DNA from: Thiothrix sp.
Lineage (GTDB): Bacteria > Pseudomonadota > Gammaproteobacteria > Thiotrichales > Thiotrichaceae
Length of the DNA: 64,000 nt
NCBI GenBank assembly: GCA_020442915.1
Contig: JAGRJD010000034.1
Coordinates: forward strand, 1 to 64,000
Direction: 5' to 3'
The position numbers and the translations under genes were made by a program. Positions 36,251 through 41,572 of the stretch are shown piece by piece (positions within the stretch are counted from its first letter, which is position 1; every line of letters begins with the position of its first letter). The notes below the pieces were generated by a model. It was not told where the DNA came from. It saw only the letters and a list, made by a program, of their open reading frames with translations, and searched no databases.

Positions 36251-37384
36251 TTATCCCGCCAGCAGGTGATTGTCCCAGATGCTGTCGGTGAACCGGTACT
36301 GCAGGCTGGCTTTCACACCTTCAGGCGTCGCCTGCAGGGCATGGATGCTGCCGTCGGCACAGGACACCAGAAAAGCTTCCGGATGGGGGAGAAAGGCAAT
36401 GCCGCCGGGTTCCGGCAGGGACATGGCCTGCAGGAAGCGCTGTTCCCGCACGCTCCAGAATGTAACCTGTCCCCCGCGCGGAGTGGTGACGGCCAGAATG
36501 GCTGCCCGCTCATTGTAAGCCAGATCGGCCATATAGCCCCGGAGCGGCACGATGGCTTCCGGGCCGATGGCCAGCAGGGTCAGATCGCCGCCACCGGCCT
36601 GCCATGCCACCAGTGAAGCCGGCTGGCTGCGATGCAGGTTGCCTTCGTATTGCAGTGCCACGCCGACCTCACCCCTGTCGGTGACGGTCAGGTGACGGAT
36701 ACTGAGCTGGTGATCCGGCAGGCGGTATTCGTCGATTTTCTGGCCGCTGGCCATATCCAGATAGACCAGGGACGGCTGCATGGTATCAAGGTTGAGCTTG
36801 CGGCGGCCAAAATCCGGGTGTTGCTCGATACCGCCGTTGGCGACCACCAGCGTCTTGCCATCCGGCATCAGCTTCAGGTCATGCGGGTCGAGGCCATGCG
36901 TTGCGTATTCACCCAGATGCTCAAAAGTACGGCTGTCGCGGATGCCCAGTACCCCGCGTTTCTCGTCATAGGCGTTTTCGGTGGTGAACAGCACCCCGCC
37001 ATCGGCAGACAGGCAGCCATGCCCATCAAAATGCCGTCCGGCAGTGGCCTGCAGCAGGGTCAGGTGATCATCCACTCCGGTACCGGTTGGGGCGGGAAGG
37101 TTCACGATGGCGGAGGTAAAGGCCGGACGGCGCCCGATCATCAGCACCCTGCCATCCGGGAGCAGCGTCAGGGCATGCCCGCGCATGGGGGTGGCCTGGC
37201 TGCAGCGTATGCCGGTCTGCAGCTCCAGTCGGGTCAGAAAGTGTCCACCGTCCAGGTGATCACTGGCGGAAAAGAGTGTGGATGCCAGGCCTGCCTGTGT
37301 GCGTGGCATGCCGGTACCGAACGCTGCACCCAGAAGGCCGGTACCGGCAAGCTGCAGCAGCCGGCGGCGTTTGAGGTCATGCAT
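36251..37384 (-). CDS. DUF1513 family protein with twin-arginine signal
   Basis: The 377-residue protein starts at ATG 37384, four bases after the upstream imelysin stop. It begins HDLKRRRLLQLAGTGLLGAAFG, a likely Tat signal. The rest is a repetitive beta-strand protein consistent with a seven-bladed beta-propeller (repeating LLPDGRVLMIG, LMPDGKTLVV patterns), matching DUF1513. It is the last gene of the iron-regulated imelysin operon, where DUF1513 proteins commonly occur. The function is unknown; a periplasmic location and a role in iron acquisition are inferred from context. Confidence 0.85.
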   Translation of the reverse strand: MHDLKRRRLLQLAGTGLLGAAFGTGMPRTQAGLASTLFSASDHLDGGHFLTRLELQTGIRCSQATPMRGHALTLLPDGRVLMIGRRPAFTSAIVNLPAPTGTGVDDHLTLLQATAGRHFDGHGCLSADGGVLFTTENAYDEKRGVLGIRDSRTFEHLGEYATHGLDPHDLKLMPDGKTLVVANGGIEQHPDFGRRKLNLDTMQPSLVYLDMASGQKIDEYRLPDHQLSIRHLTVTDRGEVGVALQYEGNLHRSQPASLVAWQAGGGDLTLLAIGPEAIVPLRGYMADLAYNERAAILAVTTPRGGQVTFWSVREQRFLQAMSLPEPGGIAFLPHPEAFLVSCADGSIHALQATPEGVKASLQYRFTDSIWDNHLLAG

Positions 37385-37388
37385 GGTT

Positions 37389-38540
37389 TCAGTCACCGTC
37401 ATTGTCATTGAAGCCGAGGTTGACACCGATCAGGGGCGCCAGATGAATGCCGAGTATCAGCTGGATACTGCGGGCACGTTGCAGGTAAGGCGCCAGCGCC
37501 GCCGTGTCATCGGCCCGGATCAGCTCGAAGGCACTCTGCTGCGGTACTGGCAGCCGGCGGAAAAATGCCACCTGATTGCGCAGGGCGGCAATGAACTGCC
37601 GGACGTCATCCGTCGGATGCAATGCCAGCAGGCAGGCATGGATGCCTCCCTGATCCAGCAGGTGCTGGATGCCCGCCATGGCTGCCTGGATCACTGCCAG
37701 TGACTGGCCGCTGCGCCAGTTGTCAAGCTGGTAAGGCTTGTGGCCGTTGAGTGCTTTACCCAGCCGGCTGCCGGAAACCTTTTCGATACTCTGGTAAAAT
37801 TTGTTGACCAGCATTTCCAGTGCCTCCTGTTCGGAGATGAAAAAACCGGCTCCGGCCTGTTCCCAGTCCTTCCGGATACGGGAGGCATATTCCGGCAGCA
37901 GGCGCGAGGCCGCCACCAGATAATGACAGCCCTGCGAATTTGCCGGGGCGAACAGGTTTTGTTGCTCCGGATCAAACAGCAGGTATTCCAGTGTGGCCAG
38001 CCCCTGAGCACCGACACCGGCTGCCGCCACCGTTGCGGGTGTAAGCGGATCAGCCTGCCTCAGCAGACGCTTGATGATCTGTTTTTTGGGCGGGCTGAAC
38101 CAGAGGTGAAAATCCCGTTCCTCCGCAATGGCCGGGCCGAACAGCAGCCCGTCGGTAGCGGCCCAGGCCTGCATGGCCGAGCGCCAGGCATGACGCACGG
38201 CCTCAAGCCCTGCGGCATCCGGCTGGTGGCAGAAGGTTTCAGCCTGTTGCTGCAGTTCACGGGTTGCCGTTTCCAGTGTACGGTACAGTGGCAATATGCC
38301 CTGTTGCACCAGCTGCTGCAGGAACGGACGGGGTCTGGCTGCCATCACTCCGGCTGTCGGGTCGGCGATGGGGCTGTCCTGTGTCGCCTCGGTTGCCATC
38401 GCCCTGTCAGGAGCGGGGGGACTGTCTGCTGTCAGGGGCGGTGACAGGCCCGGCTGTAACAGCAGCACCAGCAGCAATGCCGGCCATACAGAGCGGGGAG
38501 CGGGGGGCCGGGAACCTGCCGGTGGGGATGACTGTTTCAC
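37389..38540 (-). CDS. Imelysin family protein (second copy)
   Basis: The 383-residue protein has a signal peptide (hydrophobic stretch about 19-33) and an imelysin peptidase-like domain (about 70-380). The usual GxHxxE motif is changed to GLATLE here (histidine lost), while the paralogue at 39962 keeps it. Imelysin proteins are periplasmic or outer-membrane, iron-regulated and related to EfeO. They are thought to bind a metal or metal complex; protease activity is doubtful. Its start overlaps the di-haem gene stop by four bases. Confidence 0.86.
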   Translation of the reverse strand: MKQSSPPAGSRPPAPRSVWPALLLVLLLQPGLSPPLTADSPPAPDRAMATEATQDSPIADPTAGVMAARPRPFLQQLVQQGILPLYRTLETATRELQQQAETFCHQPDAAGLEAVRHAWRSAMQAWAATDGLLFGPAIAEERDFHLWFSPPKKQIIKRLLRQADPLTPATVAAAGVGAQGLATLEYLLFDPEQQNLFAPANSQGCHYLVAASRLLPEYASRIRKDWEQAGAGFFISEQEALEMLVNKFYQSIEKVSGSRLGKALNGHKPYQLDNWRSGQSLAVIQAAMAGIQHLLDQGGIHACLLALHPTDDVRQFIAALRNQVAFFRRLPVPQQSAFELIRADDTAALAPYLQRARSIQLILGIHLAPLIGVNLGFNDNDGD

Positions 38541-41240: not shown

Positions 41241-41432
41241 TCAGGGCCGGGCTTTGTCCGGCGTGGCAGTTGCAGCGTCGCTGTCAGGGGGGGCAGCGGT
41301 GAGAATCAGCCGGCCCCGGCGGGTGATGCTGAGCTGGTACGGGCGTTCACCATGCCGGAGCAGAATCCGGCGCTGGCCGCACATCAGGGTCTTGAGATCA
41401 ATCCAGGGTATTTTCGGATCACGGCAGCACAT
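41241..41432 (-). CDS. hemP: Hemin uptake protein HemP
   Basis: The short 63-residue protein contains the HemP pattern LMCGQRRILLRHGERPYQL followed by RGRLIL. I choose ATG 41432, which has AGGGA just upstream. A longer open frame to 41618 would put the Fur box and promoter inside the coding region. HemP is a small conserved protein needed for haem-uptake regulation in several proteobacteria. Here it heads the imelysin operon rather than a haem transport operon, which is unusual enough to note. Confidence 0.85.
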   Translation of the reverse strand: MCCRDPKIPWIDLKTLMCGQRRILLRHGERPYQLSITRRGRLILTAAPPDSDAATATPDKARP

Positions 41433-41540
41433 GGTTTCCCTGTCCTTGGCGTCGGGTTGAAGGTGTGCAGGCGGGGCCTGCAGGGTGATGACGCTGGCTG
41501 ACCGGATAGAGGAGTGAAACCGGCTGGCTTGCGACCGGCT

Positions 41541-41572
41541 GTTAATGATAATCGTTTTTGTTCTCATTGCAA
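41541..41572 (-). promoter_or_regulatory. Fur box overlapping the hemP operon promoter
   Basis: The segment 41541-41559 matches 15 of 19 positions of the classical Fur consensus (core AATGATAATC). On the minus strand a -35 TTGCAA (41567-41572) and a -10 TATCAT (41545-41550) are 16 bases apart, so a Fur dimer would cover the promoter. The predicted leader to the hemP start is about 105 bases. Iron-replete repression of the whole hemP-imelysin-dihaem-imelysin-DUF1513 unit is expected. Confidence 0.85.

What the first reader, a model, noticed from the sequence alone, without database searches (positions are those of the whole stretch)
36251..41572. Fur box drives an operon led by hemP and containing two imelysins, a di-haem protein and a beta-propeller
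A 15-of-19 Fur match overlaps a good promoter before hemP, and the following four genes are closely spaced. Imelysin/di-haem/imelysin/DUF1513 sets are known, but their biochemical role is unsolved. A lead hemP gene links the set to haem. All four larger proteins are predicted periplasmic, one by the Tat route. A system that takes up or oxidises an iron complex is plausible.
Basis: partly seen in the sequence, partly recalled or inferred. Interest (0 to 1): 0.55.

Follow-up and report, generated by a model that had tools for sequence, protein, structure and literature searches.

The report
Fur- and HemP-controlled imelysin iron operon
A sulfur bacterium carries an iron-starvation operon for a poorly understood periplasmic iron-handling set, and its first gene, usually linked to haem uptake, more likely acts as an RNA-level switch for the operon itself.

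Summary
A 15/19 Fur box (41541-41559), the only site that good in 64 kb (0.017 expected), overlaps a promoter before hemP and a compact imelysin / di-haem / imelysin / DUF1513 operon without an internal terminator. The four-gene set is known (P. aeruginosa PA4370-4373). New is the role of hemP. This Thiothrix-like genome has one hemP and no HemS haem-degrading gene; in 15 of 18 Thiotrichaceae genomes with both, hemP lies within 150 nt of the cluster's first gene. A GCCAG-hairpin-GCCAG element resembling published HmuP-responsive elements (HPREs) lies in the window's leader (41494-41530), before the imelysin gene in several relatives, and between hemP and TonB-receptor genes elsewhere. HemP-imelysin linkage recurs in three other gammaproteobacterial families. 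Relatives add Bfd, a porin and the ferric transporter FbpABC. Best reading: under iron starvation Fur lifts repression, HemP boosts the transcript through the HPRE, and the products capture and probably oxidise iron for FbpABC. "Linked to haem" is not supported; iron uptake is. HemP control and Fe(II) oxidation are inferred, not shown; a sequence-only model of receptor HPREs did not find the window element.

The parts
41545..41572 (-). sigma-70-like promoter TTGCAA-16-TATCAT
   Evidence: 9 of 12 matches; promoter-like hits in the region are at chance level (2 found, 1.3 expected)
41541..41559 (-). Fur box AAAAACGATTATCATTAAC, 15 of 19, overlapping the -10
   Evidence: the only site of 14 or more in 64 kb; 0.017 sites of 15 or more expected
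41494..41530 (-). HPRE-like leader element AAGCCAG-CCGG(loop with CTCCTC)CCGG-TCAGCCAG
   Evidence: the only one of 11 genome-wide pattern matches outside an ORF; hairpin (z -1.78 for the 66-nt stretch). Not found by the sequence-only model R1
41241..41432 (-). hemP, 63 aa, HemP/HmuP-family regulator; the only one in this genome
   Evidence: PF10636 34.4 bits; one match in the genome
39962..41197 (-). imelysin A, ICMP/PA4370 type with GxHxxE (G164, H166, E169), putative Sec signal (by eye)
   Evidence: PF09375 E 3e-86; profile hits PDB 7xrx (ICMP outer membrane protein) E 5e-169; motif invariant in 10 of 10
38537..39952 (-). DHOR, di-haem c-type oxidoreductase of the CCP/MauG fold
   Evidence: PF06537 E 7e-108; model pLDDT 91.9; best fold matches hydrazine synthase chain C Z 16.5, YhjA and MauG Z about 15.5
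37389..38540 (-). imelysin B, IPPA/PA4372 type (GxxxxE), invariant C104/C205 and C-terminal DGD
   Evidence: PF09375; PDB 3pf0 E 1e-42; conservation in 58 sequences
36251..37426 (-). DUF1513, Tat-type signal (RRRLLQL, by eye), 7-bladed propeller with five invariant His and one Tyr on or next to the presumed innermost strands; probable start 37384
   Evidence: PF07433 E 4e-85; model pLDDT 91.2; H84, H136, H182, H245, Y298, H387 in 70 of 70

Best explanation
This is a Fur-repressed iron-acquisition operon whose first product, HemP, is its own regulator. Step 1 (strong at sequence level): when iron is short, Fur leaves the box over the promoter and the five-gene message is made. Step 2 (inferred): the leader RNA carries an HPRE-like element, two GCCAG repeats around a hairpin; HemP acts on it and raises expression of the operon. 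In relatives the element sits before the imelysin gene or a porin gene. Step 3 (inferred from families and context): two imelysins bind iron in the periplasm, DHOR and the DUF1513 propeller, probably as a pair, move electrons, most likely Fe(II) to Fe(III), and the ferric iron goes to FbpA and is imported by FbpABC. FbpABC is encoded next to the cluster in many relatives and on another contig here.
For: Fur box. In Thiotrichaceae (36 genomes) DUF1513 in 19, hemP in 21, both in 18; hemP within 150 nt upstream of the cluster's first gene in 15 of those 18. Own genome: one hemP, two imelysins, no HemS. HPRE-like element within -110..+45 of ORF starts: imelysin A 6 of 22, the small 'NAWLD' gene 4 of 12, all other ORFs 1 of 351; reversed pattern 0. 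Near hemP in Thiotrichaceae loci 12 of 24 against 1 of 24 for the reversed pattern. Same element in 31 other gamma hemP loci: 25 elements in 21 loci, reversed 0, many directly before receptor genes. The window leader shares 13 nt (CGCAAGCCAGCCG) with the published chuR HPRE. hemP next to the imelysin cluster in G176, G160 and G248; in G248 the imelysin gene was looked for and found after an HPRE-porin was seen. G050 has HPRE plus a porin-like gene before the cluster with hemP elsewhere. FbpA within the fetched locus in 9 of 17 Thiotrichaceae loci; Salinisphaeraceae L092 has FbpABC-ImB-DUF1513. fbpABC plus bfd in this genome.
Against: No expression or binding data. The sequence-only model of receptor HPREs (R1) did not report the window element at E up to 10, and gave only E 0.26-0.5 for L078, L065 and L058. 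Half of Thiotrichaceae hemP loci lack a clear element, and in L063/L068 hemP and imelysin overlap with no room for one. In the window the element precedes hemP, not the imelysin gene. 0 of 56 imelysin leaders in other taxa carry it. The GCCAG pattern alone is common genome-wide and mostly coding. Close relatives are not independent. No result shows Fe(II) oxidation or which metals bind; imelysins PIBO and IPPA showed no significant effect of ferric ion in the published test (PMC3143127).
Confidence: 0.52

Rival explanations
1. Haem uptake: HemP still serves haem acquisition and the cluster handles haem or a haem-iron complex.
For: HemP-family proteins regulate haem receptors and ChuP binds haem (PMC9131926); this genome has three TonB-receptor plug matches.
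Against: No HemS in this genome and in only 3 of 39 genomes searched; the bipartite element lies before imelysin or porin genes, not receptors, in the imelysin loci; imelysins did not bind haem (PMC3143127). Haem oxygenases of other families were not searched.
Confidence: 0.12
2. Passenger: hemP is merely co-transcribed with a standard Fur-regulated imelysin operon and has no role in it; the leader repeats are chance.
For: GCCAG repeats are common in coding DNA; R1 missed the window; imelysin operons elsewhere lack the element in the leader (0 of 56).
Against: Positional enrichment before imelysin A and NAWLD, reversed-pattern controls near zero, recurrence of hemP-imelysin linkage in four gamma families.
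Confidence: 0.25
3. The cluster is a reductase or a peroxide-defence unit: DHOR acts as a di-haem peroxidase protecting iron uptake, or reduces ferric complexes, rather than oxidising Fe(II).
For: DHOR has the CCP/MauG fold; CCP/MauG genes neighbour the cluster in L063, L225 and L226.
Against: Co-location with a ferric-type transporter (FbpABC) favours an oxidised product. Not decisive.
Confidence: 0.3

Closest known systems
P. aeruginosa imelysin operon PA4370-PA4373 (ICMP)
   Same: Fur-regulated, two imelysins and a di-haem protein (PMC3143127, passages read); gene order imelysin/DHOR/imelysin/DUF1513 as found here in most loci
   Different: no hemP or HPRE described in the passages read; here hemP leads, and relatives add bfd, porin and FbpABC
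HemP/HmuP/ChuP regulators with HPREs (E. meliloti HmuP-shmR, C. violaceum ChuP-chuR/vbuA)
   Same: PF10636 protein; GCCAG-repeat leader element; C. violaceum elements at -26 and -49 nt from the start codon (PMC9131926, passages read)
   Different: targets there are TonB-dependent receptors; here the element fronts an imelysin operon, and in the window it precedes hemP itself
EfeUOB/EfeM
   Same: imelysin-type (M75) protein plus a haem protein for periplasmic iron; EfeM binds Cu, Fe and Zn (PMC9174327, passages read)
   Different: no EfeU permease, no cupredoxin domain and no DyP peroxidase found in the five genes; FbpABC is the likely partner
Hydrazine synthase beta/gamma and MauG-methylamine dehydrogenase pairs
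   Same: di-haem CCP/MauG-fold protein with a seven-bladed propeller; chains B and C of 5c2v are among the best fold matches of DUF1513 and DHOR. That MauG's partner carries a propeller, and that chain C is the gamma subunit, is recalled
   Different: fold likeness only; no evidence for hydrazine or TTQ chemistry; propellers score alike (Z 26-30)

Membership tests
HemP/HmuP family (PF10636) | profile match over the curated cut-off | tested here: met
   34.4 bits against 25
HemP/HmuP family (PF10636) | activates target expression through a leader element | not testable with these tools
   element found, activity not measurable
HPRE (HmuP-responsive element) | GCCAG repeats in the leader of an iron-uptake gene | tested here: met
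   41494-41530, the only one of 11 genome matches outside an ORF
HPRE (HmuP-responsive element) | match to a model built from receptor-linked elements | tested here: not met
   R1 does not report the window at E up to 10; the model is sequence-only and intolerant of spacing. The element is therefore called HPRE-like, not filed as an HPRE
HPRE (HmuP-responsive element) | upstream of a TonB-dependent (haem) receptor | tested here: not met
   it precedes hemP and the imelysin operon
Fur regulon | Fur box over the promoter | tested here: met
   15 of 19, 0.017 expected
Fur regulon | Fur binding and iron response | not testable with these tools
   needs footprint and RT-qPCR
ICMP-type imelysin (ImA) | GxHxxE motif and M75 profile | tested here: met
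IPPA/PA4372-type imelysin (ImB) | M75 profile with GxxxxE, His lost | tested here: met
   G180 in 58 of 58, E185 in 55 of 58, position 182 variable; 3pf0 E 1e-42
DHOR (PF06537) | two CXXCH and CCP/MauG fold | tested here: met
   C97/C100/H101 and C353/C356/H357 in 47 of 47; fold
DUF1513 (PF07433) | profile match and propeller fold | tested here: met
   286 bits against 27; model
EfeUOB | EfeU permease, EfeO cupredoxin domain and EfeB in one operon | tested here: not met
   Pfam on the five genes shows none of these
N2O-reductase/SBP56-like metallo-propeller (DUF1513) | His cluster in the propeller channel binding a metal | tested here: inconclusive
   five His and one Tyr invariant, on or next to presumed inner strands; 2ece Z 30.5, 1qni Z 27.5, within the range of other propellers; metal not testable

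The most novel reading that the evidence does not exclude
HemP with its HPRE is a general RNA-level switch for iron import, not a haem-specific one: in several gammaproteobacterial families it drives a complete non-haem route (porin, two imelysins, a di-haem oxidase paired with a Tat-exported metallo-propeller built on five His and one Tyr, then FbpABC), with DHOR and DUF1513 forming a hydrazine-synthase-like or MauG-like pair that oxidises Fe(II) in the periplasm.
Probability: 0.3. Interest if true: 0.8.

Novelty: new variant of a known kind. Interest (0 to 1): 0.58.

Why it matters
The biochemical role of the imelysin / di-haem / imelysin / DUF1513 set is unsolved although it is widespread. 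The link to HemP and an HPRE-like leader, and the neighbours (porin, Bfd, FbpABC), give direct tests: which proteins HemP raises, and whether the set hands ferric iron to FbpA. It would also widen HemP from a haem regulator to a general iron-import regulator.

Tried and rejected
Sequence-only covariance model R1 from 14 receptor-linked or hemP-linked elements: too rigid for the variable spacing. It found L074 (E 0.007; the same place as training sequence L025, plus two weaker matches there), L091 in a place away from hemP (0.11), L078 (0.26), L065 (0.3) and L058 (0.5), none in the window, and none in 57 other imelysin loci.

Genome-wide pattern search as a regulon finder: about two matches per genome in 40 Thiotrichaceae genomes, mostly background; the reversed pattern is not a fair null for coding DNA. 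Anti-Shine-Dalgarno idea: CTCC inside the element in 8 of 14 Thiotrichaceae and G050 elements (3.4 in shuffles, p 0.003) but 3 of 15 in other gammas (2.0 in shuffles); elements are related, so only a lead. Hairpin test: combined Z -3.7 for 15 gamma elements and -4.1 for 13 Thiotrichaceae/G050 elements (one near-duplicate left out of the second set) with mononucleotide shuffles; single folds are mostly unremarkable, L189 (z -4.0) excepted. Fur sites in relatives: variable, 10-16 of 19; best sites often lie 285-318 nt before hemP, where bfd's own promoter would be in the loci that carry bfd.

Sequence search for a solved DUF1513 relative gave only weak WD40, YncE, cytochrome c and hydrazine synthase fragments. 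No solved DHOR relative by sequence beyond a cytochrome c fragment. Literature: imelysin with DUF1513, none; imelysin with hemP and Fur, one unrelated vaccine paper; HmuP with HPRE, one paper; HmuP/HemP/imelysin/porin/regulator, at least 4 of 5, none. 'Not found in print' rests on those searches of an open-access library only; Amarelle 2019, cited there for HPREs, was not read and is known here only through PMC9131926. Papers opened: PMC3143127 (passages and one section), PMC9131926 (passages), PMC9174327 (passages), PMC4344238 (one passage); all others were search listings only.
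Full report
Observation. The box scores 15 of 19 with the central position free between A and T; it is the only site of 14 or more in the window, and 0.017 sites of 15 or more are expected in simulated sequence. hemP is a 63-residue gene at 41241-41432. The genes are spaced by 43 nt, 9 nt, an overlap and a few nt, and no terminator-like site lies between hemP and the first imelysin gene.

Organism. The closest named records are Thiothrix, Leucothrix, Cocleimonas and Thiofilum, so the window comes from a Thiothrix-like member of Thiotrichaceae; the assembly is 4.08 Mb, 96.7% complete.

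The set and its parts. Imelysin A is of the ICMP type: its profile matches solved ICMP (7xrx) at E 5e-169 and keeps GxHxxE. Imelysin B is of the IPPA/PA4372 type (3pf0, E 1e-42), with G180 in 58 of 58 and E185 in 55 of 58 sequences, two invariant cysteines and an invariant C-terminal DGD (D381 and D383 in 58 of 58, G382 in 57). In the IPPA crystal the last six residues are disordered (PMC3143127, passage). DHOR has two invariant CXXCH (47 of 47) and a model (pLDDT 91.9) that matches di-haem peroxidases and MauG, with a hydrazine synthase chain nominally first (Z 16.5; the next rows are at 15.6 and below). DUF1513 folds in prediction as a propeller with strands for seven blades (pLDDT 91.2). 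H84, H136, H182, H245, Y298 and H387 are identical in 70 of 70 sequences; by the strand list they lie on or next to the first strand of successive blades, which I take to be the innermost. Best fold matches include SBP56 (2ece, Z 30.5), hydrazine synthase chain B (Z 29.1) and N2O reductase (Z 27.5), within a crowd of propellers at 26 to 30.

hemP belongs to the set in Thiotrichaceae. Of 36 family genomes, 19 have DUF1513, 21 hemP, 18 both. In 15 of those 18, hemP lies within 150 nt upstream of the cluster's first gene on the same strand; in G010 it is about 0.7 kb away, in G021 about 4 kb, and in G025 on the other strand. DUF1513 without hemP occurs in G011 only; hemP without DUF1513 in G007, G016 and G018. 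In G005 (L049) imelysin A is missing and hemP is followed by DHOR. HemS, a haem-degrading partner of HemP systems, is absent from this genome and present in 3 of 39 searched. Other haem oxygenases were not searched.

The leader element. PMC9131926 (passages read) reports that ChuP, a HemP-family protein, activates chuR and vbuA post-transcriptionally and quotes HPRE sequences at -26 and -49 nt from their start codons. The window's leader, between Fur box and hemP, shares the 13-nt string CGCAAGCCAGCCG with the chuR element and has a second AGCCAG after a CCGG/CCGG hairpin. In this genome the pattern AAGCCAG-N8..28-AGCCAG occurs 11 times (4 for the reversed control); ten matches lie inside ORFs of 60 residues or more and the only one outside is this leader. 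In Thiotrichaceae loci the element falls near the start of imelysin A in 6 of 22, of the small NAWLD gene in 4 of 12, and of any other ORF in 1 of 351, with no reversed hit. The window was not counted there, because the long hemP ORF start was used. Around hemP, 12 of 24 loci have an element against 1 of 24 reversed; the L091 match among the 12 is probably coding. In 31 other gammaproteobacterial hemP loci a strict form occurs 25 times in 21 loci, reversed 0, often between hemP and a gene that looks like a TonB-receptor gene by its start. Against this, a sequence-only model trained on 14 such elements did not report the window, about half of the Thiotrichaceae loci lack it, and 0 of 56 imelysin leaders in other taxa have it.

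Recurrence outside the family. The sample gave 56 hemP-bearing genomes of 276. I searched 56 handles with the imelysin A profile: the 54 hemP-bearing genomes other than G000 and G006, plus G011 and G018. Nine of the 54 have imelysin A at E below 1e-100; in three of the nine hemP lies on the same strand within 4 kb (G176 107 nt, G160 1 kb, G248 3 kb). G176: hemP, GCCAG repeats, imelysin A, DHOR, imelysin B, DUF1513, MauG-like gene. G160: hemP, porin, imelysin A, MauG-like gene, DHOR, imelysin B, DUF1513, with no clear element. G248: hemP, element, porin-like gene, DUF2325 gene, imelysin A near the contig end; I fetched it because the element preceded a porin-like gene, and the imelysin gene was there. 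Its porin-like gene matches my porin profile (149 bits) but no Pfam family. In G050 hemP is elsewhere, but the element and a Fur-like sequence (by eye) precede a porin-like gene and the cluster.

Neighbours. Relatives carry, in the same island, bfd (PF04324, L063), bacterioferritins, a porin (PF13609, or PF03573/PF07396 in others), FbpABC-type ABC transporter genes (the name Fbp rests on family type and context) and ExbBD-TonB. FbpA-like genes lie in 9 of 17 Thiotrichaceae cluster loci (L047-L063) and porins in 8 of 17. Salinisphaeraceae L092 has FbpABC directly before imelysin B and DUF1513. Several alphaproteobacteria (L129, L131, L133, L139, L149, L154) have a ferritin-like gene between imelysin A and DHOR. 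In this genome fbpABC and bfd sit together on another contig. G021 has the cluster with a porin-like gene but no TonB-receptor plug match at 90% completeness, so a receptor may not be needed.

Mechanism and standing. Shown at sequence level: operon layout, Fur box, hemP association, leader element, iron neighbourhood. Inferred: HemP action through the element, iron as substrate, the oxidation step, hand-off to FbpA, DHOR-DUF1513 pairing. The core genes are known and Fur-regulated in P. aeruginosa (PMC3143127); an R. sphaeroides network model places a bfd gene (RSP_1547) and an imelysin gene (RSP_1548) under one regulator (PMC4344238, one passage). HemP/HPRE control of an imelysin operon was not found in print. 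I therefore call this a new variant of a known kind.

Noticed in passing
L051:10979-11305, L063:5693-6025, L070:7297-7677 and others: A conserved ~100-residue protein ('NAWLD' after its N-terminal motif) without a Pfam family over cut-off sits next to hemP, often with the same bipartite element in its own leader; a second HemP target candidate.
   Followed up: partly
window 37389-38540: Imelysin B ends in a conserved GFNxxDGD; D381 and D383 are identical in 58 of 58 sequences, yet the tail is disordered in the IPPA crystal; a docking or metal-binding tail?
   Followed up: partly
L205:1957-3219; hemP-proximal genes in L184 and L188: A DUF2325 protein lies between a porin-like gene and imelysin A in G248; look-alike proteins (by eye only) follow hemP in L184 and L188.
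   Followed up: no
L227:4116-4812: In G077 hemP is followed by a long GCCAG-repeat element and a small, apparently secreted protein, 12 kb from an imelysin-DHOR pair.
   Followed up: no
L065 and L128: Two bacterioferritin genes lie on the opposite strand between imelysin A and DHOR, splitting the operon.
   Followed up: no
window 35040-36218: A chromate-transporter gene converges on the operon; L061 also has a chromate-transporter-like gene (by sequence look only) between the porin and FbpA.
   Followed up: no
window 41721-42089: A divergent 122-residue protein with no Pfam match lies upstream of the Fur box; it looks phasin-like by eye.
   Followed up: no
L068 (G016): hemP, imelysin A, DHOR and porin are kept but imelysin B and DUF1513 are missing; a natural partial set.
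   Followed up: no
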